Positions 1-46,458 of a stretch of 54,063 bases of DNA are shown piece by piece. How positions within the stretch are numbered: position 1 is the stretch's first letter; every line of letters begins with the position of its first letter. The stretch comes from a virus: the IMG/VR virus record IMGVR_UViG_3300002242_000171, positions 1 through 54,063 of that record, one strand, 5' to 3'. The position numbers were made by a program, and so were the translations under genes. The notes beneath the pieces are model-generated. The model made no database searches and was not told the DNA's origin. It was given only the letters and a program-made list of their open reading frames with translations.

Positions 1-114
1 AATCAAAGCTAACGTTATCGTTTGCGTTTAAAAAGTTGAGTGTTTTTACTGTGCCACACTCACACAGCCTTGCACATTAAATTTTCAATATCCAGTCGAT
101 ACCAGTTCACCCCC
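1..114 (-). ncRNA. ssrA: tmRNA (ssrA), 5' part, cut by window edge
   Basis: Transfer-messenger RNA rescues stalled ribosomes and tags the unfinished peptide. Read on the minus strand, the RNA opens at 114 with GGGGGTGAACTGGTATCGAC, the usual tmRNA 5' end (acceptor strand plus TCGAC block). A clean H-type pseudoknot in the PK1 position follows: CTGTG (67-63) pairs with CACAG (53-49), and TGAGTG (62-57) pairs with CACTCA (42-37). The tag reading frame then resumes at GCA (25-23) after a TAAAC block and reads Ala-Asn-Asp-Asn-Val-Ser-Phe-Asp before the window ends. The A-N-D-N opening is typical of bacterial tags. The rest of the tag, the other pseudoknots and the 3' tRNA half lie outside. It starts 9 nt after the stop of the Cys-rich peptide gene, so it is probably cut out of the same transcript. 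Confidence 0.86.
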
Positions 115-123
115 GTGAATATT

Positions 124-225
124 CTAACATTTTCCTGAACAATTTACACATGAGCAGCAGCCACAACAGCAGCAACAATGATTGTCGTTAAATAGATTTG
201 CTAATTTGTGTAGTATTTTTTTCAT
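124..225 (-). CDS. Cys-rich 33-aa micropeptide, function unknown
   Basis: This short gene is not recognised as any known family. It starts ATG (225-223) and ends TAG (126-124), giving 33 residues. A lysine/leucine N-terminal part (MKKILHKLANLFNDN) is followed by HCCCCCGCCSCVNCSGKC, so ten of the last seventeen residues are cysteine. Translation is well supported: the primase stop codon TAA is embedded in a perfect Shine-Dalgarno sequence, TAAGGAGG, 7 nt before the ATG, so the two genes look translationally coupled. The tmRNA begins 9 nt downstream. The cysteine density suggests metal binding (metallothionein-like) or a redox or inhibitor role. The N-terminal half could form a short amphipathic helix. 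Both functions are inference. Confidence 0.72.
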   Translation of the reverse strand: MKKILHKLANLFNDNHCCCCCGCCSCVNCSGKC

Positions 226-232
226 CAGAAAT

Positions 233-240
233 CCTCCTTA
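233..240 (-). promoter_or_regulatory. Shine-Dalgarno overlapping primase stop codon
   Basis: On the minus strand the bases TAAGGAGG combine the primase stop codon TAA with a full-strength GGAGG ribosome-binding site, 7 nt before the ATG of the Cys-rich peptide. This arrangement supports translation of the small gene and coupling to the gene before it. Confidence 0.75.
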
Positions 241-1179
241 TAGATTAATGATTTCATTAATTAAATAGTCGTATGATTTGATAAATGTTGCATCTTCTTT
301 TCTCTTTATAAATTGATCTCGCGACATTTCGCCAACATCGTTATATGGAAGAATGTTGATTTTATGTACTTCAATATCATATTCTAATAAAAGCTTTATG
401 ATCCTCAAAGTTTTTCTGTCAACATCTGGATCCAATGCAATATAAACTGGCGTGTCATTTTTTACAATTTCTTGGAACAATTTTGAATGCTCTCTTAAAG
501 TTGAACCAAGAATTGGAACTGCATTGTCTCCAGCTTTGATCGCATCAAAAACGCCCTCGACCAAAATCAGATCTTCGTCGAAGTCAAGATACAGCTCATT
601 AAAAATAATATCTTTGCTGGCTTGTGGATTTTTATACTTTCTCCAATCATCTCCATAACTTCTGGCAATGAAGAAGTTTGCTTTTCCACTCAAGCCAAAT
701 GAAGGAACAATAATTCGAGACCCAAAGTCTCCATCATCACAATAACCAATTTTCCACTTAACAATATCTTGTTTAAAGATTCCTCGACTTTCCAAATAAT
801 TTAAAGGATATAGAGATGTCTTTGGAAGATTTTTGTTTGCAAGAGATGCGAATTCTTTTGGCAAATCAAGAGTTTGTTCTTCTTCAACGAACTTATCATC
901 TTGCAGTAAAACTTCTGCGAAAGTCGAGACATCAATTTGTTGTGTTAACTGGCCCCATTCTTTTCGCTCTTCGTAGTTTCCATACTTACGAATTAAACGG
1001 TAGATTGATCGGCCGGCATATTCACAAACCCAACACTTAAAAACATCGCGCTCAATATTGACTGAAAGTTTATTTTTGTGATGATCACATTTTGGACAAG
1101 CGAAAAGAAGTTCGTTTCCAGCTTGATGATAATATCCTAAAACGTTTCTTAGGATTGAACGCTTTTTTCCGTCTGACAT
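238..1179 (-). CDS. DNA primase, T4 gp61-like (zinc ribbon + TOPRIM)
   Basis: This gene makes RNA primers for lagging-strand synthesis. The N-terminus carries a zinc ribbon, C28-P-K-C31 and C49-W-V-C52, as in CHC2-type primases. The TOPRIM part shows the metal-binding glutamate in LILVEGVFDA (E208) and the acidic D-P-D-V-D motif at 250-254. The length of about 313 aa fits phage primases that work with a separate helicase. I prefer the ATG at 1179, which has AGGG 5 nt upstream. The frame also extends to a TTG at 1206, but that adds nine residues without a better ribosome site. The start overlaps the end of the RuvC-like gene by 31 nt. No helicase gene is visible in the window. Confidence 0.85.
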   Translation of the reverse strand: MSDGKKRSILRNVLGYYHQAGNELLFACPKCDHHKNKLSVNIERDVFKCWVCEYAGRSIYRLIRKYGNYEERKEWGQLTQQIDVSTFAEVLLQDDKFVEEEQTLDLPKEFASLANKNLPKTSLYPLNYLESRGIFKQDIVKWKIGYCDDGDFGSRIIVPSFGLSGKANFFIARSYGDDWRKYKNPQASKDIIFNELYLDFDEDLILVEGVFDAIKAGDNAVPILGSTLREHSKLFQEIVKNDTPVYIALDPDVDRKTLRIIKLLLEYDIEVHKINILPYNDVGEMSRDQFIKRKEDATFIKSYDYLINEIINL

Positions 1180-1688
1180 ATATACCCTGCTTTTGCAATC
1201 ACCCAACTGTCTGCTTTATCAAAACAGTACGGTTTTGGATTGCCATGCTTAGTATATTCTATAAGAACAGACGGTACATTGTCAAGAACATAATCTATAA
1301 CAACTTGTTTTGCCTTGACACCTTTAGGTATTTTGATGCCACATTTTTTTCTTGCGGAGGTCGCTGCGACATATTCTGGTATTATATCTAGAATCGAATA
1401 ACATAGCCAGGATACGATTCCATTAAATCGAGAAAGAGTCGAAAGAGTCTTTGCTGATGAAAAGCCACTTCGAAAACTTTGTAAAGATTGTTCTATATAA
1501 ACAGCCTCTAGATGAAACATATCGTCTAGTTCCCATATTCTATCTTTAATAAAATCAGACTTGTCAAACAAAGTAGGAAAATACTTTTTATTGCGCATAT
1601 CCCAAGCTGTACAAAAAATAACTTTACCATCTTTATCTAAGACTGTTGCGCCAGTTATGCTCGTACTAATATCTAAACCTAAAATCAT
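1149..1688 (-). CDS. RuvC-like Holliday-junction resolvase (RNase H fold)
   Basis: This is a probable four-way-junction or branched-DNA nuclease used in phage recombination or in debranching DNA before packaging. The first strand, ILGLDISTSITGA, carries the first catalytic Asp (D6). VYIEQSLQSF carries the Glu (E66), and the C-terminal helix CFDKADSWVIA supplies D157 and D160, the D-E-D-D pattern of RuvC-type enzymes. At 179 aa it is close to bacterial RuvC length. It lies between the virion genes and the primase, with a 12-nt gap to the structural gene downstream of its coordinates and a 31-nt overlap with the primase. T4 uses an unrelated enzyme (gp49) for this job, so this is a substitution relative to T4. 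Confidence 0.8.
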   Translation of the reverse strand: MILGLDISTSITGATVLDKDGKVIFCTAWDMRNKKYFPTLFDKSDFIKDRIWELDDMFHLEAVYIEQSLQSFRSGFSSAKTLSTLSRFNGIVSWLCYSILDIIPEYVAATSARKKCGIKIPKGVKAKQVVIDYVLDNVPSVLIEYTKHGNPKPYCFDKADSWVIAKAGYICQTEKSVQS

Positions 1689-12927: not shown

Positions 12928-15900
12928 TTAAAAATCCGTTCCTTCTTCTTGTCGCTGGGCTGGCGTATAAGCATTTTCACCTTCCGGTAGGTCCGAATTC
13001 TGTGGTCCCTGCTCTTCAAAGAATGAGTCTTCTGGAGCGGATTCTGGTGTTTCCGCAATAACTTCCGGACTAGTCAACTTTATTGAAGTTTCCAATTTTG
13101 CCAATTCAACCAAAGAACAATAATCATAGGGCCAATTATAACTATACGTATGATCAACATCTGCAGTATTTTCAACTTGATTTGTAATAAAAGCTAGATT
13201 GTCAGACTCAGTTTCAGTTACATTAATATATTTATTTCTTGCGCGCTTCTTAACTTTAAAAACCATCCATCTTAAGTTTCTAGTTATTTTTTTAATATCG
13301 CTCTTGCTCATCCCTTCGCCGGTGAATTTTTGCCAGAATTCGCTCATTAATTCTCCATCTTTGCAGGGAATACTCAAAGTTGAACTATCCGGCACAACTT
13401 TCATTGCTATATCCGGCATTACTCCTTGCCATATATCCTGCAGTTCTTGTCTAGAGAATTTATGCTTGAATTCAAAAGCAAACATCACAAATGGATCAAT
13501 AATTGGATTTGAATTATTTACAAAATCCCAACGAGGCGGGAATATAAATCTTCTCATTTTATCTTTGAGATTCAAAACAGATGGTGACTGGCTAGTTTCA
13601 GCGCTCTGTTCATCAATTTGTTCCTCAACTTGATTAACAATATCCAATATACTTGTGGCGTCGTAGTTCGCGGCGTCGGATTTTACTTCTATATTGTAAA
13701 TCGGGAAGAAATATTTATTATCTGCTTTCGAATGTATGCAATTAAATTTGGCTGCCAAAGCTTTAGATTGCAAATATGGTATTGCGACAATACATTCTGA
13801 TATTGATTTTTCTCCATCAGTAGGCAACTCACCAACTTTTTGATTTTTTGGTGTTCCTTGTGCAAACATTGTTGCCAATAATGATTTACTGTTTGATGTA
13901 TAAGCGCCAAGTTCACTAGGCTCTGTATCTCTCAAGGTAAGTTTGAGGCCGCGGCCGCCTTCTGGAATATTTCCATATCCATTCCACATGCCTCTTGCTT
14001 TGCTATCATCAGTATAATGATTAAAACTTAGAACAGGGCATTCGTATTTGGTAGAAATGACCCATTGTTCTTGTTCTGTTGGATCGTCTGGCTGTTGAAC
14101 AATAATCCCATCGGGACCTGAAGCAACCAAAGGAGCAATCTTTTTGCCAAATAAATCCAAAGAGGAAGAAACATTCATCATAGTACTAATTGCTGGGGAT
14201 GTTTGGTCGACCCAAGTTCGCAATGGATAATTGCCTCCCTTAAGGGTACCCGGGGCCCATTGCGCATATCCTGAACTTCCTGTATCATATGACGCTGAAG
14301 GAATGTTGTTTAAATTATTGTAATAAGATGCCGTTAATTTGCTGAATATTGTACCTAGGGAGGGCTGTGGCGTATCCTCGACAGTATTTGTATAAGTTAA
14401 ATCAACAGTTGCTTTTCCATAAAAGTACGGAGGAGTATAAGGTGCATATGCCGGATCTTGCCTTTCGCCGTACAACATCTCATTGAACAAATTTGAGGCG
14501 GTATAAAAGGCCGTAGAGGCGCCATAAATTTCGCCGCGGCAATTTCTATAATAGAAAGATGCTGTATTGCCTGGTTGCAATCCATTGAAATCTAAGCCAT
14601 TTCCATAAGCTATAGAGCTATTAATCGCACCCTCTGTCATAATATTCTCAACCATTTCTATGTCAATTGACATTTGGTATGTAACATCTTGCTTGAAAGA
14701 AATTTCTGACATTGGCTTTGATGTCCATGAAGTTAGTCTTCCATCTTTAATAAATAAGTTAACAGATTCTGCCAAGAAATTATCCATAGCTCGACGATAT
14801 AAATCATGACTTTCGTTGCCATTCCAAGTAAAGAATGCATCAGTATAATTGTTTGCAACTGCATATAATTTATTTCGTCTGTTGCTCGCATCTTCTGAAT
14901 CATAAATTGGTAATTTCGAAAAATCATATAAAGCTTCGAAAGGCAATCTATAATTTGAAGCAGTCGCATATGTAAAAGCCTGCAAGCCCTCAGGAGCTTC
15001 CGGGACGGAACCGGTATAAATTGGCCAGTCAACTGCAATTCCAGATTTAATAGTATTATATAAAATACCAGGAGCAAAATATGGCTGCAACAGAGCCTGT
15101 GTGCGTGCTGCATTCTGATTAACATACCCGCTCCATGGATCATCTGCAGATTCAATACTTTGAGAGCCGCTGATGTGGGCGCCCAAAGACTGTGACAAGA
15201 GTGTCGCTAATTGTATTGTTCTATTAACAGGATAGAATCCGTTATATGGCAATAGTTTTTTGAGGCCATGACATGTCAATCTAATAGAGGTTGCATTTGC
15301 TAAATTCTTATGATCTTCTACAATAATATCAAAATTTTTCAAGAAGTCTGAATGTAAATAATCTTTATAAAATTGTGTATTCACGCTAGCGGAATTAATT
15401 ATACCATCAATTCTAAAATTATTTCGATACGGAACTGGTGCCATAAAATCAGAATCTTTATCTATTACGTAATATGGCATATGGTTGGAAATATTGAATT
15501 CAGGAATAACTGAATAGTCTTTTCCAATCTTACTTAAATCTGCAGAATAATCTGTGTATGAATCATACCAAGGATTTCTGCCGCGATCGATATTTGTAGT
15601 CCAATTAATATTAGACGAGCCAGACTGTAAATCGTTAGTCCACTGACTAAGAGCAGTTGCGTTTGAACCAAGCCAGCCGGCGGGGTTGGAGGGAGTTCCA
15701 GGCGCAATTGCGCGCATTGTAGAATCTAGACCATGGTATCGAACCGAGGCTGTGGTCCAAATTAAATCTCGGGGTGATCCGGACCTAGAGGAGCCGACGT
15801 CTGTCGTCGGGCCCGTATCAACAAAAGAAGGGCCATTAAACAATTGTCCAGAATACTTATCTCTAGAATTAAGTGCTTGTGGGGCCGGCCAAGCGAAGAT

Positions 15901-18900
15901 GGAGCCGGCCGGACCGGAAGAAGCAGAAAGCTCTTCAAAAGAGCCCGTCCATGCACCTTCGAGTGGCCATATGCTTAAAGAAGCGCCAGTCGAGCCGCTC
16001 ATCACAGTCCATGACTGGTAAGATGGCGACGCGTGATAAGGCCAATCAGTAACGTTCGAGGCACTTAAATAATAGTTTTGGTTGTTCAGTGCGATTAAAT
16101 CTGTTCTCACACGATTTTCAATATCATCTCTCCAGAAAGATCTATGAGATATGCGATCATAACTGTTGTCTCCGCCGCCGGCAACTTCAGTATAATTATT
16201 TCTTGCCCTTGTTCTATTCAAGAATGTATTTTTAGACTGAGGCCATATAACTTCCGTATATCGCAAAGACTCAAAACGCTTAATTGGATTCAAGGGGCTA
16301 ACAATGTCGTCATCTCTATATAAGGAGGTTATAGAATCATATATTGGCGGAGGCTTAGTAGTTGACTTAAACCATTCGTTGTGATTAAACAAGAAAGCAT
16401 GGTAAGCTGCTTGCGGATTAGCAAAAGAACAAATATTATTATTAAATGTATAATCGAAGACCATACCTTGAGTTTCAGTAGGCTTATAAAGATCTTGAAC
16501 TGCCCGGACTCTTATTTGAACTGGCTTATGCTTTATTGTCACAACAGATTCTGTAAAGTTTAATATTGGATTTACACCAAACTTCAGTGCTTTTTTGTCA
16601 TTAGTGTCAGGAATGCTTTGTTGCTTTGCTTGCATCTTAACGGCACTAAAAGTATTTGTTTTCCTATGATGTCTCATAATCGGATGATTTCCGCCACGAA
16701 TCTGTTTCCAAGATGGCCAGCCGTATGGGCCTTGGCGATGATGTATGATACCATTCAATAATGCGTTGCCGGCATAAGTCGAAAGAAGCACACCCTTGGA
16801 AATTAAACCACCTTGATATTGATAAGACGTTGCATTGTTTTCATAGCCAGTGTTAGTGCCTGGATATCCTAAGCTATTTTCGCTAGCTGTTACTGGCTCA
16901 TATATGTTAGTGTTGAGGCCTACGAAATCATTACGAATAAGTGGATATCCAACTGCAAGGAGGGGGGCCTCTGGAAGTCCATATCTCCATGTTGAGTCGC
17001 CGGCGAACCAATAACTTGCAAAATCGCTAGAACTAACAAATGTCATATCATTTGATTTTATCGAATATCCCAAAGGCGCTGTTAATCCATCTCCTCCGCC
17101 TGCATAATAAAGGTTGCCAAAAATATTTGGACCTGCATAATTGCCAGATAGAGAAGCAGTAATCCAAGCATACTGACGATCACTCTGTGGAATTGCGTGC
17201 TGTATGAAGAAATTATCATATCGCTGCCTATTCACTGCTATTTCTGTTCCATCGGGCATAATATACGCTTCAGCACTTTGACCAACATTTCTATTGACTT
17301 TGTGTACTGAAGCAGTTAGAGCGGCGCCGTCTGTTGTAGATAAGCGCGCATCATAACCAGGATATGGGCCGCCGGCCATATGATTTCGTTGTAATATATC
17401 CAAAGGCGGCGTTGTTGTCAAGGTTCTCAAATTTATATCATGAGGATTGCCAAATGGACGTGTTTCGTAAAAGACACTTGGATTAGTTCCGCTGCGAAAT
17501 GTTTCCAAAGTGGCTCCTTGGTGAGATCTCTCTTCCATTACGGCGCGGCCATTTCCTGCAATACCCGGCTCAGTCTGATATATCCAAAAACGAGCTTGTG
17601 CGGGGTCTGTGGCACCCGGATAATTGGTGATCACCGCGGAAGCAGTTATTCCTAACACTCCACCAGAAAAAGCAGTATTAATTGCGTGAGCTAACGAATG
17701 TGCAGAGCCAGATTCTGCCAGGCCCGGGCCGATTGCAGCACAATCAGATGCATCCCAAAAAGCCGAACACCTAGTTCCATAATTGAATACCAAACCATTA
17801 TTATCATATCCTACAGTCGGATCCGTTAACCATGTTGCAAGATAATTTTCTCTAAATGTTATATTAAGGCCCGCGCTGGAAGTCAATCCTATAGTAAAAG
17901 GCTTAGCCCAGCCGCCCAAGCCTTGACTAGTGATGCTAACAACTGCCACTGCACTATCACCGGATGCAGTGATATTTGATCTTGGTTTTCTAACCGTCAT
18001 ATTACGGTAGTTTAGGCTGTTATAGACGGAGAAGGTGTGTGAAGCAGGGTCAAGATAGCCTAGGGCCATTGCTTCCGGAGAACCGGGTGCAGAGAAGCGG
18101 TCAGCGATCGTCACACTTTGCAACGATGAGCCGGTTCTGTCCATCATATTAAAATCAATATTTCCGGAAAGATTGAAGACCTCTGCTGTTGCTTGTGTAA
18201 AGTTGGCGAAATTATCTTTTAGCCAGCCTTTTTGTGTATTGGCGCCGACCGTTTGAACTATCTGATATTCTTTAGAATAATTGCCCAAATATAATGACCC
18301 GGTGCTGGTTTTTATGTTTTTGATAACAACCGGTCTTTTGGCGATTTCATCTAAGAAATATTTTGATTTTGGATCATCATCGGCGCGTTTACTTAAAGTT
18401 AAATTAGAAGCGTTAACTGCCAAATCATATTCTTCAATACGGTCAGTTGTCGTAAATGGAGCAACTTTTCTTGATTTTTTGCCTCCGACATGAATTTTTG
18501 TAAATGGACCTTGCAAGGTTTCTTGCGTTTCGGCGCCATATACATCGCGATGATTATCGTTGATTTCAATTCCACTATTAAATGTAGTAAGAGACGTTTT
18601 GTAGCCAGTGTCAACGGAAGAAGAGTAAACTGTAAATGGCGCAATGTTGCGGCCTTTTATTGGACTTTGTTCTAAGTTTGCTTTAAAGTCTAATCTTCGT
18701 TTGACATTTAGATCATCTTTATCTGTACAATCTACAAAGCTCTCAATATCTTGTAGAATAATATTTTCTGTTTTGCTGCTTTGATCTAATTCAGTTTTTA
18801 CAAAGTTATATTTAATATTATCAATCTTAAAATCTTGGGCTCGATCGACGGCAAAATGATAAGGTCTGGTGAATTTTCTTAATGCATATGTGGATCCAGA

Positions 18901-21900
18901 GACAACCGAATTTGAAATTCGTTTAATTATTTCTCTTTGTTCGTCAACTGTTGAATCTCCAGAAGATATAAGAATTCTATCTCTTTCTGCCCTATCTTTC
19001 CAGTATAAACAATTAACATTTTCTTCTGCTGCGCCTTGAATAAAGTAGCTAAATGTTATATGCAGGGCGAAGACGTCGGTATCGATATCTGTGTTTCCTA
19101 GGGGACCTGGCTCCAATTGATTAAATCTAAAAGTATTCGTTATCGAGCCAATCATTGCCAAAATTTTACCTTGATGGCCGGCAGATGAATTGACCGCTTC
19201 TATAATCTCGCCTCTAAAATCAGATTGGCTAGACATTCCTTGAATTTGAACCCAAACTTCTGTTGAATTGCCGGTACCTGTTTTTACGGTACCGGTGGAG
19301 CCCGCGCCATTATCATCAAAAACATACTTGCGCTTTGTTCCATCTGTCGATATTAATGTAAAATATTCTCCATCTAAATCAGAAGATGTGCTTGTAATAA
19401 CAGCAGTTTGTGTCCATGCATATGTAAAATTGCCTGGCTCGTGGCCTTCTTTCCAATTATATAATAATTCGTTAATGCCTTTGATTCTTCCATCGGGCTC
19501 AGGCTGCTGAAGATTTAAGTTTGTATACTTTGTCTCAATCCTATTTCTTTCTAATACATGACTCTCAATCATATTCCTTACATTATCTGCCATATCAGCA
19601 GTTGCAGGAACCAAATTTAAAAGCATTGTAGAAATTGAATTATCAATCCATTTAAAATATTCTATAAATTTATCTAAATCCGGTATGTTGTCAACTCGAC
19701 GGAAAAACAATTCTTTGATTTTATCCATCTCTTTGCTTGATTTTCGATATCTGGTGACTGGATCTCCAATTAAATTATGAAAATCTTTGATGCCGGCGAA
19801 CATGTTCAGCATTTCATAAGAAATATTTGCATACATGCTCTTTTCGAAAGCATAAAAATATTTAACCGGGCGATGTTCACGAGTAAATATTTCTCCTTCG
19901 AAATCAACTATATTAACCATATCATCAGAATTAATCAAATCCGGAGCGACTAATCTAGTCGAGGGTACGTATTTCTTTTCAACTACTTGTGTGCTGCTAG
20001 CAGCAAAATTATGTCCCAATCCAGTATGCTGTCTTTCAACGATATTGGATAATGGATAACTTAATAGTTCATTTGATCCGCTAGAAAAATCACTAACTGC
20101 AAATTGTCCCGAAGCATCAGAGGCAGTAACCTGTGCAAAATCCCAATTTAGTGCCAAAGAAGAGATTTTTGGCATTTCTGTTTCAGATAAACTCTTGTTT
20201 GAGGCGACGCCTTGAAATAAATACGTATTTCTGTGAGGATGATTAACGCCATAAGATGCATCATTTTTGGCATGATATTCCAAAGTATCATTTTCAAGAT
20301 ATGAATTCCAATAGCGCGCATAAGATACGTAAACATCTGATTCATTCAAAAGTGTACCACTAAAGTTTGTTCTATGTGCACCAACAAATAAACGCTTTGG
20401 AACAGAGAAAAAAGTAGATCCATATGCAGACTGTAGCGTACCCGATATTGCGAAACTGTTTATGATGGTGTCGCCAAGATGTTGGTATCCAATTAATTCC
20501 GCAGTTACTTCAACCGGAGTATCAGATCCTGTAACAAAATCAACTTGTGGATATTTTGTATCTCTAAGCCTAACACTCAAATTCCATTCTGTGTTGTCAT
20601 ATATATCTGTGTATACTGATGATGTAATCGGCCCTAGGGCGCTGCCTGTTAAAAGAAAGTAAGCCTCTGGGCTGTCTCTCATCGATTGTTTTTGTTTTCT
20701 AACAATATAAACTTGTACTGAGCCGCTATCACTTGTAGCCCAAGCAGTATCTGTATTACTATCTGTTTTTGCTGTATGTAAGCCAAAAAGCGACGAGGTT
20801 GTTTCACTATAAATTTTTGAATCTCTACTTTGTAACAAAGGATATTTGGGAAATAAAATTTGTGTTTCAACCGTAACAGCGCCTAGTGCGTCAATACCAT
20901 TAGTTTCATCATCGCTTCCAGATATATAAGATTTTGAATTTGGATTTCCAGCTTCGGGATATCCATATACAGATGCAGCATTATTATTATAAAAATCAAC
21001 ATATTTTGATTTTGACGACACATCTCTTGTATTAGTTTCTAAACGCCAATTTGTATTTTGTCCATATAAGTTAAGTCTTACTAGTTCTTCATCAATTCCA
21101 ACACATCTTAAGAGATTTCTAAATGATTTCTTTGTGCCTTTTGTTTTATAGATATGAATTAAATTGTTATAAATGTTTTTGTATATCTGGTTCTTTACAT
21201 CATATAATTTTTTCTCAAATAGCTTCTTATCATCTCGGGTATTTGCATATGCAAAGATATCAATATCTGTTAAAATTTCGTCAACATCAAAACCATAATC
21301 TTTCAGAAGTCGATCATTAAAGAAATGTGGGCGTGCGCTACTAGAGGCATATTGTATATTCTTAATTGTAGGAAGTGCTTCGATTTGCAAATGCAAAGTA
21401 TCAAGATAGCTAGCTAAAATTTGTGTTAATTTGTGTAATTGTCCTTCGCCTTGAGCATAATCATCTTCTGATATCCAGGCTGGCAAACTATTAATTAAAG
21501 AAGATCCGTTGTTGAAATCATGTTCTTGGCCTATAGTCTTTAAATTCTCTAGTTTACTAGCGACGTCCGGATGAAAAGAATAAATAATTGGATCTTGAAA
21601 TTCGCGGCTGGCATGGCCAGATTCTACTAACGCTGAAGATGTAGAACGACTATCTGTGGAACTATATCCTTCCCAAAGGCCATCGCTGATTCTTCCTGAA
21701 TAGTCCAAAACAACGCTATCTACTGAAGATGTTTGAGTTATTCCTTCATTAAATTTATAATATACTCCCAAGTACGTATTTGATAAATCAGTGTTTGTTC
21801 CGCCATAAACTTGATCTTTATAAAATCTTCCAATCTGTTTCGCGTTTCTTGCTGTTTTCCAAAATCTAAATTCATCGATAGAGCCACTTAGTTTACCCCA

Positions 21901-23010
21901 ACCTAAATCACCTTTATTATCATTCAAGATTGTTGTAACCTGAGATCCTATTGTCGCGATAAAAGCTCCAGTGACGGGGCCCTGGGATCCCCAGTGATCA
22001 TCACTGCCGGAAGTCTTAGTAGAAGTTAAGACGCCGTCGACATATAACTCACTTTTGTTAATGTTGCCACTGTTTTGTGATACTAGTGTATAGTGGTGCC
22101 ATTTATCGTCTGCAATGTTTGTTAAGCCGGTATCAAAGCCGCCGGCACACCAAACAGAATCACCAGAAGGACAATATTGCGCGTTATTAGAGCCAGATTG
22201 TATACCAGCAAAGATTTTATTTGGCTCTGAACTTCTTAGATAAATCATAAATCTACCATAAGTTCCACCAATGCCAATATCCGATAAGCTAGCGCTATTC
22301 CATAAATCGAATATTGTTTCGCTGGTTCCGCCCGGGCTGCCAGTTATTTGTGTATCGTCGTTTGCCCATTGTGCCTTTTTAAGCCAAAATTCTACAGTGT
22401 TACCATAAGTAAGATCTAATTTTAAATTAGATTCTCTAAAACTACCGGTGTCATAAATATTTGCTTTTGACAAGCCTTTGATTGATTGTCCTGGCTCTAT
22501 TTCTGATTTCCAATCTTCATTAGGGTCTGCGTTTGGGCCACCTTTGATAAAGATGTATTCTTTTGTAGAAGAATCATAAGATCTGTGGAGCGAGTGAGCA
22601 GGGGATCCAGTCAAGGCAGTCTGGTAGGCACCAATTGTGATATGTCCAGTTGTACGAGGATATTCATTTTCAAATATATGTTTATCTAAATAACTTGATG
22701 ATAGGTCCCATAATACTTTTTCTTTTTGACTTCCATCATAAGGATACTGATTGTAGATTCTAGTAAATGCATCTTTATAATATTCTTCTGCCGATCCATA
22801 TCTTGCAAAATTTGATGCTGAAGCAAAATCAATTTGTGGCACAAATCGATCTTCTTGCGCTTCATAAGCTTGAAGAAATTCACTAGATTCAATTTCATTA
22901 GCAAGAGACGCAGTTGTACTGCTGGTCAAATAACTAAAATTTTTACTCCCAGGCTTGAAATAATCTGCTATTTTTCCAGCGCTGTTAGGATCTATAATTT
23001 TTTTATCCAT
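12928..23010 (-). CDS. Giant baseplate/tail protein (3360 aa) with lectin-like domains
   Basis: This is one uninterrupted frame. Residues about 195-430 form a LamG/concanavalin-A-like fold: NTVEFWLKKAQW, DDKWHHYTLV, ELYVDGVL and LSGSIDEFRFWKTARN are its usual strands. A second such fold is likely at about 708-915 (TEWNLSVRLRD, RLFVGAHRTNFSG, VYVSYARYWNS). Between them, IYKTKGTKKSFRNLLRCVGI (about 620-639) resembles the K-G-T segment of P2 gpI-type and wedge proteins, so this may be the gp7-like wedge core with added binding domains. Further on, two segments ending QLEPGPLGN and QTEPGIAGN look like copies of one structural module. The gene follows gp6 and the 550-aa gene, as expected for a wedge component. 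Sugar binding is inferred from the fold. Confidence 0.72.
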   Translation of the reverse strand: MDKKIIDPNSAGKIADYFKPGSKNFSYLTSSTTASLANEIESSEFLQAYEAQEDRFVPQIDFASASNFARYGSAEEYYKDAFTRIYNQYPYDGSQKEKVLWDLSSSYLDKHIFENEYPRTTGHITIGAYQTALTGSPAHSLHRSYDSSTKEYIFIKGGPNADPNEDWKSEIEPGQSIKGLSKANIYDTGSFRESNLKLDLTYGNTVEFWLKKAQWANDDTQITGSPGGTSETIFDLWNSASLSDIGIGGTYGRFMIYLRSSEPNKIFAGIQSGSNNAQYCPSGDSVWCAGGFDTGLTNIADDKWHHYTLVSQNSGNINKSELYVDGVLTSTKTSGSDDHWGSQGPVTGAFIATIGSQVTTILNDNKGDLGWGKLSGSIDEFRFWKTARNAKQIGRFYKDQVYGGTNTDLSNTYLGVYYKFNEGITQTSSVDSVVLDYSGRISDGLWEGYSSTDSRSTSSALVESGHASREFQDPIIYSFHPDVASKLENLKTIGQEHDFNNGSSLINSLPAWISEDDYAQGEGQLHKLTQILASYLDTLHLQIEALPTIKNIQYASSSARPHFFNDRLLKDYGFDVDEILTDIDIFAYANTRDDKKLFEKKLYDVKNQIYKNIYNNLIHIYKTKGTKKSFRNLLRCVGIDEELVRLNLYGQNTNWRLETNTRDVSSKSKYVDFYNNNAASVYGYPEAGNPNSKSYISGSDDETNGIDALGAVTVETQILFPKYPLLQSRDSKIYSETTSSLFGLHTAKTDSNTDTAWATSDSGSVQVYIVRKQKQSMRDSPEAYFLLTGSALGPITSSVYTDIYDNTEWNLSVRLRDTKYPQVDFVTGSDTPVEVTAELIGYQHLGDTIINSFAISGTLQSAYGSTFFSVPKRLFVGAHRTNFSGTLLNESDVYVSYARYWNSYLENDTLEYHAKNDASYGVNHPHRNTYLFQGVASNKSLSETEMPKISSLALNWDFAQVTASDASGQFAVSDFSSGSNELLSYPLSNIVERQHTGLGHNFAASSTQVVEKKYVPSTRLVAPDLINSDDMVNIVDFEGEIFTREHRPVKYFYAFEKSMYANISYEMLNMFAGIKDFHNLIGDPVTRYRKSSKEMDKIKELFFRRVDNIPDLDKFIEYFKWIDNSISTMLLNLVPATADMADNVRNMIESHVLERNRIETKYTNLNLQQPEPDGRIKGINELLYNWKEGHEPGNFTYAWTQTAVITSTSSDLDGEYFTLISTDGTKRKYVFDDNGAGSTGTVKTGTGNSTEVWVQIQGMSSQSDFRGEIIEAVNSSAGHQGKILAMIGSITNTFRFNQLEPGPLGNTDIDTDVFALHITFSYFIQGAAEENVNCLYWKDRAERDRILISSGDSTVDEQREIIKRISNSVVSGSTYALRKFTRPYHFAVDRAQDFKIDNIKYNFVKTELDQSSKTENIILQDIESFVDCTDKDDLNVKRRLDFKANLEQSPIKGRNIAPFTVYSSSVDTGYKTSLTTFNSGIEINDNHRDVYGAETQETLQGPFTKIHVGGKKSRKVAPFTTTDRIEEYDLAVNASNLTLSKRADDDPKSKYFLDEIAKRPVVIKNIKTSTGSLYLGNYSKEYQIVQTVGANTQKGWLKDNFANFTQATAEVFNLSGNIDFNMMDRTGSSLQSVTIADRFSAPGSPEAMALGYLDPASHTFSVYNSLNYRNMTVRKPRSNITASGDSAVAVVSITSQGLGGWAKPFTIGLTSSAGLNITFRENYLATWLTDPTVGYDNNGLVFNYGTRCSAFWDASDCAAIGPGLAESGSAHSLAHAINTAFSGGVLGITASAVITNYPGATDPAQARFWIYQTEPGIAGNGRAVMEERSHQGATLETFRSGTNPSVFYETRPFGNPHDINLRTLTTTPPLDILQRNHMAGGPYPGYDARLSTTDGAALTASVHKVNRNVGQSAEAYIMPDGTEIAVNRQRYDNFFIQHAIPQSDRQYAWITASLSGNYAGPNIFGNLYYAGGGDGLTAPLGYSIKSNDMTFVSSSDFASYWFAGDSTWRYGLPEAPLLAVGYPLIRNDFVGLNTNIYEPVTASENSLGYPGTNTGYENNATSYQYQGGLISKGVLLSTYAGNALLNGIIHHRQGPYGWPSWKQIRGGNHPIMRHHRKTNTFSAVKMQAKQQSIPDTNDKKALKFGVNPILNFTESVVTIKHKPVQIRVRAVQDLYKPTETQGMVFDYTFNNNICSFANPQAAYHAFLFNHNEWFKSTTKPPPIYDSITSLYRDDDIVSPLNPIKRFESLRYTEVIWPQSKNTFLNRTRARNNYTEVAGGGDNSYDRISHRSFWRDDIENRVRTDLIALNNQNYYLSASNVTDWPYHASPSYQSWTVMSGSTGASLSIWPLEGAWTGSFEELSASSGPAGSIFAWPAPQALNSRDKYSGQLFNGPSFVDTGPTTDVGSSRSGSPRDLIWTTASVRYHGLDSTMRAIAPGTPSNPAGWLGSNATALSQWTNDLQSGSSNINWTTNIDRGRNPWYDSYTDYSADLSKIGKDYSVIPEFNISNHMPYYVIDKDSDFMAPVPYRNNFRIDGIINSASVNTQFYKDYLHSDFLKNFDIIVEDHKNLANATSIRLTCHGLKKLLPYNGFYPVNRTIQLATLLSQSLGAHISGSQSIESADDPWSGYVNQNAARTQALLQPYFAPGILYNTIKSGIAVDWPIYTGSVPEAPEGLQAFTYATASNYRLPFEALYDFSKLPIYDSEDASNRRNKLYAVANNYTDAFFTWNGNESHDLYRRAMDNFLAESVNLFIKDGRLTSWTSKPMSEISFKQDVTYQMSIDIEMVENIMTEGAINSSIAYGNGLDFNGLQPGNTASFYYRNCRGEIYGASTAFYTASNLFNEMLYGERQDPAYAPYTPPYFYGKATVDLTYTNTVEDTPQPSLGTIFSKLTASYYNNLNNIPSASYDTGSSGYAQWAPGTLKGGNYPLRTWVDQTSPAISTMMNVSSSLDLFGKKIAPLVASGPDGIIVQQPDDPTEQEQWVISTKYECPVLSFNHYTDDSKARGMWNGYGNIPEGGRGLKLTLRDTEPSELGAYTSNSKSLLATMFAQGTPKNQKVGELPTDGEKSISECIVAIPYLQSKALAAKFNCIHSKADNKYFFPIYNIEVKSDAANYDATSILDIVNQVEEQIDEQSAETSQSPSVLNLKDKMRRFIFPPRWDFVNNSNPIIDPFVMFAFEFKHKFSRQELQDIWQGVMPDIAMKVVPDSSTLSIPCKDGELMSEFWQKFTGEGMSKSDIKKITRNLRWMVFKVKKRARNKYINVTETESDNLAFITNQVENTADVDHTYSYNWPYDYCSLVELAKLETSIKLTSPEVIAETPESAPEDSFFEEQGPQNSDLPEGENAYTPAQRQEEGTDF

Positions 23011-26924: not shown

Positions 26925-29900
26925 TTATTTTTTACACTCATCTTCTGGATCTGCAGAGAAGCCATCTAAGTCAATTTCTACGTTGGGGGCACCAAGTGTG
27001 TCGTCGGTGGCCAACTCAGGCTCTGGTGCTCTTGGGAATTCGACCGGCATGAAAGCTAGAGCTGCATAAATAAACCCTAGGGGGCCGACATGTATTGATG
27101 GATCTCCAAACGCGGGAAAGCCTGGCGGATATATGGGTGTTGGGCGATCGCCGAAGGGATCCCACATCATTTCCAACAACGCCTTATCTGGTAAACCCTG
27201 CTCTTCTTGAACATTCATAAAGTGCGCTAGCCCGGGATCAATTTGTTTTACCAGATATCTTAATAAAAATTTGGGCACGACAGTGCCAAGCCACTGAATA
27301 AATGGATCGCTTGTGTTTCCAAAAGAAAGAGCCTTTTGCATTGCTTCGTTCCAGCTTTCCATTTCAGGACCTTCGGCGCCAGATAAAGGCTCGGACTCAT
27401 CCCAATTATTTTTTGGCTTATTCTGCTCTTTTAACAGTGCTGCAGCAATTTTTCTACTTTCTAAGAACATCTTGTCATAATTGTATTTGTCATCATATGG
27501 GAAATACATATGATGCAACATCGCGAAATTTAATAAATTCGAAGTTGGAAAAACAAAATCATCAAATATTCGTACTGATGGTAAATTAAATAAATCTTCT
27601 ACCAAATCTCTAGAATCAATTCCGTGACGCGTCACCAAAGGATCGAGAGCAGAGAGCGCCTCTGAGTCAAGTATACTATAATCCAGCCATTCCGGATCAA
27701 CGTTAAATGCTTGTTTAATATCTGCAAAAGTTAGATTTTTAAAATCATGCATTTCTTTTTCTATAAACGCATCTTCAATTGGTATTATAAAAAACGGTTT
27801 AATGATTCTAAATGAGTCCCTGATCGATAAACTTGGCCATCCAGTATCATCTGCTATAGCTTGAATTTGATTTAACTTAGATGTGTTGGGGCTTTTTATT
27901 AATTCTTTTATTTCATAGGCACGCTCTAAAAATCCTTTATTCCGCATTGATGAATCATGATTTTTTTCCTCGGCATGTTTAATCGAATTTTTAATTAAAT
28001 CAATAAAAGTACCATTTTGATCTAAGTCAGATGATGATATCGGTGAAATTTTATTCTTACTTCTATCTTCTACTACATTTTGAATTTTATTTTGATCTAG
28101 ATCAAGCGTGTCCCATAAATTATGAGGAGCTACATAAACTAATCTTAATCCATGTTTTATACTGCTAAGAAAATAAGAAATAGCAGTATCAGCCAATTCA
28201 AGCGTCAGACCTGGCATGCCTGAAACTCCATTTATATAATTATCAAATACTTCTAAAGACTTTAAAATTGCAATATCGAAATTTTTATATGAAATAGTAA
28301 ATTCAGTTGCGTTATCCGTGTGTATAAATTCTACACCTAGGGCTGCCTGGAATGCTTCGTACATGGTTACAAATAAATCTTCTTCTCCTGTCCATAAAAA
28401 ATCCTTTGAATAGTTAAATTTTATTTTTAAATATTTTTGCAGTATAAATCCGCCGTCTTTTGTTAGTCGGCCCATGTGGGTAAGATTCCCTTCGGCATCA
28501 TAAAATGAAGATAAGACCTTATTTGAAGGAGAAGTATATGCTTCGTTATAAGCATCACAATTGATATTTTTTGAATCTACTGTATTTTCTGTGTTAAACA
28601 GCGAGCGCTCTTCATCTAATCGCATAACAATATTGTTTGGACTATTCGGTGGTACTTTCCAAGTACCTAGGTATTTACCGTTGACAGCAAGGCCTGAAAT
28701 TCCATGGAATGATAATTTATTGTTATGGTTTGTCCAAGGAAAATAATTAACTAAATTTGGCTTAAAGGTCGATGGATTATCTGCATACATAAGCTGACTA
28801 GACCCGTCAGCAAAATTTGCTATTGTAGCATCTCCAAATCCATGAGTTCCTTCATCAATATTTTTAAATGTAAGCAACTGGCTTGGAACATCATAAATCG
28901 CTTGTGATGCTAATAAATTCTTAGCCTTCTTATTTCGACGAACTTTATCCAATAAAATGTTATCTAAACGTGACACCATTGATTTTGTGTTATCGTTGAT
29001 AAGCACTTTAAATGCCAAATCAAGAAAAATCGATTTAAGACGACTTTTAATTTCAAATACAGAGTTGACTTCATAATTAAATCCATTATTTTCAGCAATA
29101 ATTTTTACAACATCTGCGTTTATTACACCCATGTCTTTATTCAATTCATCTAAATCTGCTAAATTAAAAATCTTATCCTGAAGGCTTGTGAATGTACGTT
29201 TTGTTATATCTTTGGAATCATCATATAAAACTTTGTTTGATAAAATCTTTACTTCAAGTTTTTCATCAACTTTCCTTCTCAGGTTTTCCATGACAGTTAC
29301 TTGTAATTGTTTATAAAGGCTAGGGTCGATCAAGTTAGCATTTTCTTTCATTTTGGTTTTCATCAAAGTTAAGAATATGCTAGAATCAACTAATGAATCT
29401 TGTACGCTGAATCTAGAAAAGAAAAATAAAGATCTTATCATGGCTTCAGCTAAAATAAGACGTGTATAAGCCAAAGCCATTCCATATCTTAAGGCATCGT
29501 TAAATGGATCCGGGTCGGCTTCAGATCTAGAAATTGCTTCACATGCATTTTTTTTATAATAATCTTTTATTAATTTTTTTAATCCTTCATAATCCAACAT
29601 TCCATCTCTAAGTTTTTTTAAATTTGGATTAGCGCTATCATTACAAATTAACTGTTTCGATAAATAATCTGACTGGCTTCCCAAAATCAAACTAGTAAAT
29701 TCATCAATATTAAACAATCTAGATTTGGAACATTGCCGAAAGATATCTCCTTGTTTTTTAACAAGATGCATCTGATGTATGTTCACCAAATGTTCTTCTA
29801 ACTCTTTATAATTGTTTATATATTCTTGTTTGGCAGCGCCCATGGCGGCGCCAGGAAATGCATTAGCAATAGATTTAGAAATAGATCTAGCAAACGTAAA

Positions 29901-32900
29901 TTCTGGCAATGTAACGTCGGGATCTGAATCGAAAGTTATTCCTATATTTTTTCCTGTAAGATCTTGACCTTCTTGATAAAGCGAAAGAAGATGATCATAT
30001 GTTTTCTTATCTTTTATCAGATCACTTACTTCAAAATTATAAACTTTATTATTTCCATTTTGGCTTTTATCAAAAGCATATGTTCCATGTTTTAAAACAA
30101 CAAATTTGGCATAATCTAGCGGAATGTTAGTCTGCTCTATGTGCTGTTGTTTGGGAATATGAAGATCAACTAGCCTTATATCTTGAGAAGCATATAGCGG
30201 AGCATATTTTTTATCACCAGAAATCATGTCTTCTATTGATGCGTTGTGCTGCATTGCTCCGTTAACAATTGTAAGTTGTTGCCATAATTCAGGCATCCTA
30301 TCTTCAATTTCTGTTTGAAGATCTTCAATCGCCGATTCGGCCTCGCTTAAATCAATTTGTAATGGATACATTTGATCTTGCAGTTCCCATAAAACAGGCA
30401 TGTCGATAAATGAAATAGCACCTAAATCATCTATTTTCTGCTGAATCAATGCTATTTCTTCTTGCAATTGAATCTTTTGTGTCTGAAGGCTAAAAATTTC
30501 TTGATTATCCGCGGCGTTGGCGCTCGAAAGAGTATCCATCAAGTCCCAATTATCTGAATAACCAATTAATAGATCTGTATAGTCTTTTTTTGCGCCGGCG
30601 CTTTTTATTTCAACAGTTGAATAAAACTTTTTAAATTTCTGTGAAGCTCCGTCGATACTAATATTTCCTTTCTTCAAAATATTAGATTCATCTGTTTTTT
30701 CTATATTGGTTTTCAATCTTGGCGCAACCTTGCGAATAACTTTATCTTGTTTAGGAAAACTACCGGTTTGAGGCGTGTTGTTTTCGTCAAATAGAACAAC
30801 GCCATCCAAAGGAGTGCCTTCGGCTCCGACTACCTCATTGCCTGGTGTCCATGGCTGTGTATAGTCTCTTCCCAGAACAGGATATCTGAAAGGAGCATCC
30901 TCGCCGGCGCCATAGGGAACAAATTCTTCTTTAATTAAAAGAGATTTTGCACCCAAAACATCAGCATTGAAGCGATCCGATAAGGAATCAAATATGGTTT
31001 TCAAAAGCCTATCGGTCATGCGATTCATATAATCATTATCAACCAGGGCGCCGTCCATACATGCATTATATGAGTTATCAAAAGAATCTTGGAAATAATC
31101 TGAAATTTCTTCATATGCTAAAATTCCTTCTAATGTTTCAAGTTTTTCTTTATTAATTTCGTCACTAGACTTAAGAATTTCTTCGCATTGTTCTTCGGAA
31201 AATCCCTTACTTTTCAGCATGTTACAATAAGCCTCATCTTTATATTTCTTTTCACATAATAAAGTAATCAAGCTTAAATCTTGTACAACGGTATTGCAAT
31301 AAGCAGTGTTTACATACCGTCCTAATTTTAGAAAATATGTTGCAACATCATCTGTTGTTTTAATAATCAAGCCTAAAATTCTGAATGCTTTTATTTCTTG
31401 TACAGCCTTGAGTACTAATTTCTTTGTTTTAGGAGAGGCCTCGAAAGAAAACAAACTACATATTTCAGATGGTTTTAATAGGCCCGAAACATAGTTTAAC
31501 AATTTTTTTAATTCTTCTATTAAGTCAATAGTTATTGGTATTCTATCATTTGAATCTTCTAACATTTTTCTTAAATTATCATCGATCCTGGCGGCATCCT
31601 CGAATAACGAAGCAATATCTAGATTGCCAGCGTTGTTAAGAGGAAGATCTCCTTGTTGGTCCGGGATGGATGGTATTAAATTAGCTAAATTCATGAGTGC
31701 CGCGGAAGTATTGGCGGTAACTTCATCATCAGACAATCCTGCTATCAAATCATCAACTGCGTTTTCAGTCGAGGGCCAATTAACCATATCTTCTAATATA
31801 TCTTGTGTGTTAGAGGGAATATCTGAAACGTTTCCTTCCGCACACATCATGAGTGCCTCTTGCAAGATTGTTTTTATTGTCGATAGCAGAACACTGTTCA
31901 AGCCCTCATCAATCCCTTTCTCGATTGCCATATCAACGGCGCCCAGAGGATCGTCACTATAGTCTACAGTAGGTACTTCAACACTGGGAACATCCATTTC
32001 TTTAGTGAAAACACCGGTTGCATCTGCTGTCATTTTGCTTTTTAGCGCTGTAATTCCAGGAACATTATCAAATTTTCCGCTTATGCTTATAATTTCTTTA
32101 AGGCCTGGTATTTCTTCGGCGCCGGCTTCTAACATGTTAGCAAATTCATCAGACTTGTAAAATTCTGTTGCATTTTTAATAGCGTTAAAAAAATCTTGAA
32201 CAAGATTTTTCTCTTTAATTAATTTCATTAATGCGACAGTAGCAAAAGCTAATTTTTCTTTTGTTACCGGTGGCTTGGCTGTTTCGGCAATCATCTGCAA
32301 TTGTTCTAAAGTATCCGGATCTAAAATTTTTGACAACTCTTCGTTAACTTTTTCATTTGCGGCCATGGCCATCAATACTGTGTCTGATAAGGCTTTTAAT
32401 ATCGCCATGGTAGCGGCTTCGATTGCATCTTCGATTGGAACTAATTTGCGAAGACACATCGTGGCTTGAATAATAAATTCTCGTATGTTAAGGCGGTATA
32501 CTATGTCAAATAAGTCATCGACATCATCGATATATGGTAATATCAACATCATTCCTTTAATGAAGTCGTCACCATCGTTGTTTTCTTTATCTTTTACCTT
32601 GGCCTTTTTCTGATCTGTTTCTGATTCCATGTCCTCATTTTCTTTTGTCAGATCTTCTTTTGTTTTTACCTTCTTTTCTTCTTTTTCTTTTTCATTTCCG
32701 GCTGCTTTTTCATATGCCTCATACGCGCCAGAGGGACTGTCCCCGCCTGGCGATTCTTTCTCTTTTGCCGGCTTAATTGCTGGCGATGGAATCGTAAATT
32801 TTTGTACTAATTTAATACCAGCATATTCCTTTTCCAAAACGTCAATATTTGATCTTAATACTAGATCAAGTTTTTTAGCATAGAAAAGATAACCAGTAGC

Positions 32901-45291: not shown

Positions 45292-46458
45292 TTAAGGCCT
45301 TCTGTTTAATTTTTCGCACAAAGATACAATTTGCTTTTCAGATAATTCAGTATGGTTTCCGATATATAAACTATTTTCATGAATAAAATCAGCATTATTC
45401 AAATTACCTGAAATTCTAAATTCGTAGTTCTTTAAATACGGCTGTCTGGCTTGATTGCCGCCGCCGGCAGTGCCCAGACGATATTCTACCCCTTCTTCTT
45501 CCAAAGTTCTGCAAATTTGTTTTAATAATAGAGAGTTGGCTTCTTTTAATATTAGAGGTAATGCAAAACTACTATTGCCCTGTAGATTAAAATCAGTAAA
45601 AAACATATCTTTGTCTAATGAATTGAGCCATGTGTTCAAATTATCTTTTCTACAGGAAATGTTATAATCTAGCCTTTTTATTTGTTGCAAACCCAATACT
45701 GCATTCAGTTCAGTGCTGCGCATATTGTAGCCTGGTACTCCAAATGTAAAAAGTGGATTTAAGCCTGTTTCATAATATCCTTCATGGGTTTTTTTATCGA
45801 CTTCTCGCGTCATCCCATGAGAACGAAAAAGTCTAGCTAATTGATATATCTTATAGTCATTTGTGCAAACCATGCCTCCTTCTATCGTTGTGATATGGTG
45901 ACCAAAATAAAAAGAGAAGCAAGACATGTCTCCTAAAGTGCCAACTTTCTTATTTTCATGTTCAGCTCCGTGTGATTCACAGCAGTCTTCAATTAACAAG
46001 AGATCATTTTTCTTTGCTAATCGAATTATCTCTTCGTTCAAGCCATCAAAACCCAAACAATGAACCAAAACAATTGCTTTTGTATTTTCATTGATTGCGT
46101 TTTTAATATTTTCATAAGAAATTGCCATAGTCTCTTTATCAACATCAACAAAAACCGGCTTGAAACCAGTATTGATCACAGAAGCAACATCAGAAACCCA
46201 TCCAATTGGTGGAACAATAATTTCTCCTTTCTGTCCCTTCATTTCGCGGGTTATGGCCATGGTAATATAATTCGCAGAAGCTCCGGAATTGACCATGACA
46301 CTATATTTAACTCCTAGCCATTTTGACCAAGCTTCTTCAAATTCTTTTACTTTTGGCCCATTTGTAAAGCGGTTTGAATTTAATATAAAATCTGCCAATG
46401 CTAGCTTATCTTCTTGAGTTATATTATCGTTAATTAAGGGTATATTAAAGTTCTTCAT
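45292..46458 (-). CDS. DegT-fold sugar 3-dehydratase-like enzyme (His-His in place of Lys)
   Basis: The 388-aa product is a PLP-dependent sugar-modifying enzyme of the DegT/DnrJ/EryC1/StrS fold. In aminotransferases of this family the PLP lysine lies in a S-F-x-x-x-K motif; here the segment reads FSFYFGHHITTIEGG, with H187-H188 in that place and no lysine. ColD and CDP-6-deoxyglucose 3-dehydratases have exactly such a His and remove the 3-hydroxyl. This predicts a 3-deoxygenation step rather than amine transfer. LLIEDCCESHGA (154-165) carries the PLP-binding Asp. It overlaps the radical SAM gene by 1 base and is followed by the GMD-like gene, which could make its 4-keto-6-deoxy substrate. Confidence 0.78.
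   Translation of the reverse strand: MKNFNIPLINDNITQEDKLALADFILNSNRFTNGPKVKEFEEAWSKWLGVKYSVMVNSGASANYITMAITREMKGQKGEIIVPPIGWVSDVASVINTGFKPVFVDVDKETMAISYENIKNAINENTKAIVLVHCLGFDGLNEEIIRLAKKNDLLLIEDCCESHGAEHENKKVGTLGDMSCFSFYFGHHITTIEGGMVCTNDYKIYQLARLFRSHGMTREVDKKTHEGYYETGLNPLFTFGVPGYNMRSTELNAVLGLQQIKRLDYNISCRKDNLNTWLNSLDKDMFFTDFNLQGNSSFALPLILKEANSLLLKQICRTLEEEGVEYRLGTAGGGNQARQPYLKNYEFRISGNLNNADFIHENSLYIGNHTELSEKQIVSLCEKLNRRP

What the first reader, a model, noticed from the sequence alone, without database searches (positions are those of the whole stretch)
124..225. Hidden 33-residue peptide with ten cysteines, coupled to the primase
A gene too short for standard calling has a full Shine-Dalgarno embedded in the primase stop (TAAGGAGG), an ATG, and a C-terminus HCCCCCGCCSCVNCSGKC. 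It sits between a primase and a tmRNA. This density of cysteine in a cytosolic peptide suggests a metal- or redox-active phage product that I do not recognise.
Basis: partly seen in the sequence, partly recalled or inferred. Interest (0 to 1): 0.75.

Follow-up and report, generated by a model that had tools for sequence, protein, structure and literature searches.

The report
Hidden ten-cysteine phage peptide family
A 33-residue phage protein, too short for ordinary gene finders, proves to belong to a previously unnamed family found in dozens of large T4-type phages, nearly always with exactly ten cysteines and often beside genes for proteins that appear to be packed into the virus head, which suggests a tiny metal- or thiol-carrying protein made during head assembly.

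Summary
ORF 124..225(-), MKKILHKLANLFNDNHCCCCCGCCSCVNCSGKC, is a real gene. Its Shine-Dalgarno overlaps the primase stop. A tmRNA follows, but only its 5' 114 nt lie in the window. I found 75 distinct family sequences (plus one degenerate copy) in IMG/VR contigs, almost all Gp23-type (T4-superfamily) phages, normally one copy per contig. They share an amphipathic N-terminal helix, an invariant His, and a C5-G-C2-x-C core with a variable tail. Total cysteines are exactly 10 in 68 of 75. The tail holds two cysteines in 69 of 75, in about 20 layouts: number is conserved, spacing is not. Scans using only the helix (32 loci) or helix plus HC (50 loci) returned nothing but this family; a Cys-array scan without His returned none. 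No Pfam, PHROGs, NCBIfam, PADLOC or PDB relative was found.

The primase link is lineage-specific. The general association is with genes whose products start with capsid-targeting-like sequences (41% of adjacent genes versus 0.8% elsewhere in the same genomes). Best explanation: a metallothionein-like thiolate peptide made with, and possibly packaged among, internal head proteins. The coding family is shown; metal binding and packaging are inferred.

The parts
124..225 (-). Gene of the 33-aa ten-cysteine peptide (ATG at 225..223, stop TAG at 126..124)
   Evidence: family alignment; coding signature
226..240 (-). Primase stop codon TAA overlapped by the Shine-Dalgarno AAGGAGG and a 7-nt spacer
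   Evidence: sequence; ribosome-site statistics
178..222 (-). N-terminal amphipathic helix segment KKILHKLANLFNDN-H (codons 2-16), the address or docking part
   Evidence: hydrophobic moment; AlphaFold2 helix at residues 2-11; conservation
127..177 (-). Ten-cysteine module CCCCCGCCSCVNCSGKC (codons 17-33)
238..1206 (-). DnaG-like primase (zinc ribbon and TOPRIM), immediate upstream gene
1..114 (-). 5' part of a tmRNA gene, cut off by the contig end; tag begins ANDNVSFD
   Evidence: RF00023 E=3.9e-14; complete tmRNA in relatives

Best explanation
The ORF is a member of an undescribed family of 31-49 aa proteins of large T4-superfamily phages. It has two parts: an N-terminal amphipathic helix that acts as an address or docking segment, and a flexible module of one invariant His plus ten Cys that folds only when it binds soft metal ions (Zn2+, Cu+ or Fe), like a minimal metallothionein. 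Number of ligands, rather than their spacing, appears to be under selection. The gene is often carried among genes for putative capsid-targeted internal head proteins. The most likely scenario is that it is made with them, and it may be packaged and injected with them, carrying or buffering metal or thiols for the phage. Shown here: coding gene, family, ten-Cys count, amphipathic N-terminus, phage type, genomic association. Inferred: metal binding, time of expression, packaging, delivery.
For: Family and coding. Exactly 10 Cys in 68 of 75; tail count 2 in 69 of 75 over about 20 layouts; variance of the total 0.093 versus 0.635 summed over columns; aromatic residues 2 of 1223 in the module, as usual in metallothioneins (the comparison is general knowledge). 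In L046 the one lost Cys at that column is replaced by His, another metal ligand. Phage type: Gp23 in 37 of 44 contigs searched, S77 prohead protease in 28 of 34 members. Neighbours with capsid-targeting-like N-termini: 58 of 142 versus 4 of 521 background; 40 of 142 versus 3 of 521 with an HMM trained on more distant genes. In the window's own lineage the primase-tmRNA interval is a cargo slot: empty in L005, L007, L008; two such genes in L002; peptide plus three to five such genes in L003, L004, L006. In L051 and L099 the peptide directly follows the prohead protease gene.
Against: No metal-binding or expression data. The helix lacks the L/I-X-E cleavage site of capsid-targeting sequences and scores only 2.1 bits against their model, versus about 33 for true members. 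In the window's own contig no such cargo gene lies beside it. Many loci have other neighbours (S2P-type protease, DNA polymerase, tail sheath). Patchy presence (absent in 15 primase-related records, most of them fragments) shows it is dispensable.
Confidence: 0.45

Rival explanations
1. Host-takeover or membrane peptide: the amphipathic helix binds the inner membrane or a host protein, and the Cys/His cluster is a small structural zinc knot that fixes an interaction surface. It acts in the cytosol and is never packaged.
For: Amphipathic helix with near-invariant H6, L8, F12; short accessory gene in variable small-gene regions; patchy distribution.
Against: No target known. A structural zinc knot usually needs fixed spacing, whereas the tail spacing varies freely.
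Confidence: 0.25
2. Virion disulfide staple: a peptide kept reduced in the cell that cross-links head proteins when particles meet oxygen outside.
For: Even number of cysteines in most members; neighbours are head-protein genes.
Against: Five adjacent cysteines and free tail spacing do not suit a fixed disulfide pattern; totals of 9 and 11 occur.
Confidence: 0.12
3. Precursor of a modified peptide (RiPP): helix as leader, Cys module as core.
For: Leader-core layout; conserved N-terminus.
Against: Radical SAM genes in only 4 of 34 member contigs; no maturation enzyme among the Pfam families listed for adjacent genes. A host enzyme is not excluded.
Confidence: 0.05
4. Chance or antisense open frame in a repeat, not a gene.
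For: Cys-array matches without His are common in viral contigs and mostly lack a start codon or a ribosome site.
Against: Third-position variation, conserved helix, start and Shine-Dalgarno in 75 distinct sequences; none of the 87 no-His stretches shows the helix.
Confidence: 0.01

Closest known systems
Metallothioneins (for example cyanobacterial SmtA; general knowledge)
   Same: Very small, Cys-rich, hardly any aromatic residues in the Cys module, His beside the Cys cluster, ligand number kept while spacing varies
   Different: No sequence match to any Pfam or NCBIfam model; run of five Cys; added amphipathic helix; phage gene; metal binding untested
T4 internal head proteins and their capsid targeting sequences (IPI-IPIII, Alt; PMC9026906)
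   Same: Genes lie together with putative capsid-targeted genes; phages have the S77 prohead protease; short hydrophobic-patterned MK... N-terminus
   Different: No L/I-X-E cleavage site; weak score against the targeting model; packaging untested
AT-hook proteins (Pfam PF02178)
   Same: L043, L064, L068, L075, L086 end in RRRGRPRK
   Different: Below Pfam's cut-off (12.2 of 17.4 bits); absent from most members and from the window peptide

Membership tests
Metallothionein (class defined by properties) | Small protein, very high Cys content, few or no aromatic residues | tested here: met
   10 Cys of 33 residues; 2 aromatic residues of 1223 in the Cys modules. The N-terminal helix does contain Phe.
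Metallothionein (class defined by properties) | Binds several d10 metal ions through thiolate clusters | not testable with these tools
   Needs mass spectrometry or spectroscopy
Metallothionein (class defined by properties) | Sequence match to a described metallothionein family | tested here: not met
   Pfam and NCBIfam scans of 38 members: none; HMMER composition filters may hide weak Cys-rich matches
T4-type capsid-targeted internal head protein | N-terminal targeting sequence ending in a prohead-protease site L/I-X-E | tested here: not met
   No conserved Glu at the end of the helix; 2.1 bits against the targeting model. In T4 a processing-blocked variant still targets (PMC9026906).
T4-type capsid-targeted internal head protein | Gene lies among internal head protein genes of a T4-type phage | tested here: met
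   58 of 142 adjacent genes versus 4 of 521; held-out model 40 of 142 versus 3 of 521. The neighbours themselves are only inferred to be head proteins.
T4-type capsid-targeted internal head protein | Present inside virions | not testable with these tools
   Needs virion proteomics
RiPP precursor | Modification enzyme encoded nearby or in the same genome | tested here: not met
   Radical SAM in 4 of 34 member contigs; none among listed families of adjacent genes
AT-hook protein | Pfam AT_hook above curated cut-off | tested here: not met
   12.2 and 11.6 bits versus 17.4

The most novel reading that the evidence does not exclude
Large uncultivated T4-type phages pack a metal-loaded or thiol-rich micro-metallothionein into the head with their other cargo proteins and inject it with the genome, delivering metal or reducing power, or stripping a host metalloprotein, at the first moment of infection. 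No phage is known to me to deliver a metallothionein-like peptide.
Probability: 0.2. Interest if true: 0.88.

Novelty: new variant of a known kind. Interest (0 to 1): 0.63.

Why it matters
A protein family with a near-fixed number of cysteines is spread through large T4-type phages and appears in none of the family libraries searched. It may be missed because it is only about 33 residues long; that cause is an inference. It gives a compact, testable object: a module of about 17 residues that seems to be selected for ligand number rather than spacing. If it is packaged, phages would have a way to bring metal or thiol chemistry into the host with the genome. The work also exposes a variable cargo slot between primase and tmRNA in one phage lineage.

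Tried and rejected
The nearest cultured primase relatives (Flavobacterium phage immuto, Microcystis phage Mel-JY01) and one uncultured phage record gave no match to the family profile. Fe-S assembly linkage: IscU in 7 of 34 members versus 0 of 10 non-members, too few to mean much. RiPP idea: radical SAM in 4 of 34. Prokaryote genomes: six pattern hits in 84,980 species, five chance, one a MAG contig of the same length as an IMG/VR contig. The test of the helix as a capsid-targeting sequence was weak. No paper with the motif, or on phage metallothioneins, was found in the held library.

Full report
Observation. The window's minus strand encodes, at 225..124, MKKILHKLANLFNDNHCCCCCGCCSCVNCSGKC, 33 residues with ten cysteines. 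The upstream gene, 238..1206(-), is a DnaG-like primase. Its stop codon overlaps the peptide's Shine-Dalgarno (TAAGGAGG), 7 nt before the ATG. The claimed tmRNA is real but only its 5' part lies in the window: RF00023 at 114..1(-), E=3.9e-14, cut off by the contig end. ARAGORN and gathering-threshold Rfam miss it. In seven close relatives a complete tmRNA lies downstream of the primase, with tags ANDNV[DGST]F[DE]YALAA.

A real family. Twenty primase relatives were fetched without any reference to the peptide. Five of them have a homologous peptide right after the primase. A scan for HCCCCCGCC in viral contigs returned 80 loci, apparently the cap, of which 79 encode a short family member (L070 is the exception). 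Because that pattern fixes the His and seven cysteines, I ran scans that do not. Helix plus His-Cys gave 50 loci, all family. The helix alone, with no cysteine in the pattern, gave 32 loci, all already in the family. Conversely, the Cys array without His gave 87 stretches, none with the helix; most have no start codon or only weak ribosome sites and look like frames opposite Ala/Gln-rich repeats. Helix, His and Cys module therefore belong together. Across the alignment, variability sits in the third codon position (entropy 20.4, 15.7, 41.0 bits) and Cys codons mix TGC and TGT. A Shine-Dalgarno core precedes 62 of 74 starts versus 12% of random ATGs; since starts were chosen partly by ribosome site this is slightly flattering. 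No formal dN/dS was computed.

Anatomy. The consensus is M-K-x-[FLVI]-[LI]-H-[KR]-L-x-N-[LI]-F-[ND]-x-x-H-C5-G-C2-x-C followed by a tail. AlphaFold2 gives a helix at residues 2-11 and no confident fold for the rest (mean pLDDT 66.7). The helix is amphipathic (moment 0.71, reached by about 1.4% of shuffles). The most telling feature is cysteine number. Excluding one degenerate tandem copy, 68 of 75 distinct sequences have exactly ten. The tail, never part of a search pattern, holds two cysteines in 69 of 75 although it occurs in about 20 layouts (CxGxC, GCC, CC and so on). Two alignment columns are almost perfectly exclusive (41 versus 32 sequences, two with both). The variance of the total is 0.093, against 0.635 if columns varied independently; part of this reflects how the tails were gapped. 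Both sequences that lost two core cysteines (L102, L106) have one extra in the tail. This favours a metal-thiolate cluster over a fixed disulfide pattern, but it is an inference. Five members (L043, L064, L068, L075, L086) have an added RRRGRPRK tail resembling an AT hook, below Pfam's cut-off.

Where it lives. A search of 50 records found one copy per record in the 35 that have it, with one tandem exception. Of the contigs searched, 37 of 44 have a Gp23 major capsid gene, and 28 of 34 members have the S77 prohead protease, so these are T4-superfamily phages. They may overlap the uncultivated Far-T4 phages (PMC4360716), which I did not test. Contig habitats were not reported by the tools; from memory many of the data sets are marine, which is unverified. 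In 84,980 prokaryote genomes the only true match to the strict pattern is a 101,404-base contig binned with a Halobacteriovorax MAG, the same length as an IMG/VR virus contig. This is a weak host hint at best.

Neighbours. The gene is codirectional with the gene upstream in 71 of 71 readable loci (median gap 14 nt), but that gene belongs to 39 different clusters: primase in 14 loci and an S2P-type protease in six, and others including prohead protease, tail sheath and DNA polymerase. What recurs is a class of small genes whose products begin MK[IL]TKxxLxxIIKEE, MKxLLExWRxYLxE or PRYFLNE. These resemble T4 capsid targeting sequences, which are about 10 residues long and cut after L/I-X-E by the prohead protease (PMC9026906). 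They make up 58 of 142 immediate neighbours versus 4 of 521 genes elsewhere in ten of the same genomes, falling to 25%, 24% and 16% with distance. Since the patterns were written after seeing the neighbours, I repeated the test with an HMM of the first type trained only on more distant genes: 40 of 142 versus 3 of 521. The training genes still come from the same loci, so the test is held out by position, not by genome. The window's own lineage shows the slot directly: between primase and tmRNA, L005, L007 and L008 have nothing, L002 has two such genes, and L003, L004 and L006 have the peptide followed by three to five of them. In the window only the peptide is present.

Mechanism. I commit to a metallothionein-like thiolate module with a helical address, made with internal head proteins and possibly packaged. 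The steps not shown are metal binding, late expression and packaging. The helix itself is not demonstrably a capsid-targeting sequence: it lacks the cleavage site and scores poorly against the targeting model, although better than typical N-termini. In T4 a residue change that blocks processing still allows targeting (PMC9026906), so packaging stays possible. Rivals are a host-takeover or membrane peptide with a zinc knot, a virion disulfide staple, and a modified peptide; the last is disfavoured by the rarity of radical SAM genes (4 of 34).

Known relatives. No family in Pfam, PHROGs, NCBIfam or PADLOC and no PDB chain matches apart from the sub-threshold AT hook, with the caveat that composition filters disfavour Cys-rich sequences. 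The held literature has no paper containing HCCCCCGCC and none found on phage metallothioneins. The family is therefore undescribed as far as these tools reach; its kind, a Cys-rich putative metal-binding micro-protein, is known.

Noticed in passing
L002, L003, L004, L006, L036, L038, L059, L068, L088 and others: Large families of small phage proteins begin MK[IL]TKxxLxxIIKEE, MKxLLExWRxYLxE or PRYFLNE, like capsid-targeting sequences; some loci hold several in a row. This looks like a large packaged-protein repertoire.
   Followed up: partly
window 1..240 and L002-L008: The interval between primase and tmRNA is a variable cargo slot: empty in some relatives, filled with up to six genes in others.
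   Followed up: partly
L032, L049, L066, L081: Phage genes for IscU, an IscA/ErpA-like Fe-S carrier and a cysteine-synthase-like enzyme lie near the peptide in some contigs; IscU is in 7 of 34 member contigs.
   Followed up: partly
L028, L037, L053, L087, L088, L102 (upstream gene): A phage-encoded site-2-type protease (Peptidase_M50) sits directly upstream of the peptide in one lineage.
   Followed up: no
L043, L064, L068, L075, L086: Peptide variants carry a C-terminal RRRGRPRK tail resembling an AT hook.
   Followed up: partly
L048 1565..1785 (reverse-complement coordinates): Tandem second copy of the peptide gene with a shortened helix and a lost Cys tail, apparently decaying.
   Followed up: no
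window 12928..23010 and 26925..35420: Two giant ORFs of 3360 and 2831 aa on the minus strand.
   Followed up: no
window 46458..47978: Gene related (24% identity) to a B12-binding radical SAM protein of Streptomyces phage SF3, near sugar-nucleotide epimerase and aminotransferase genes.
   Followed up: no
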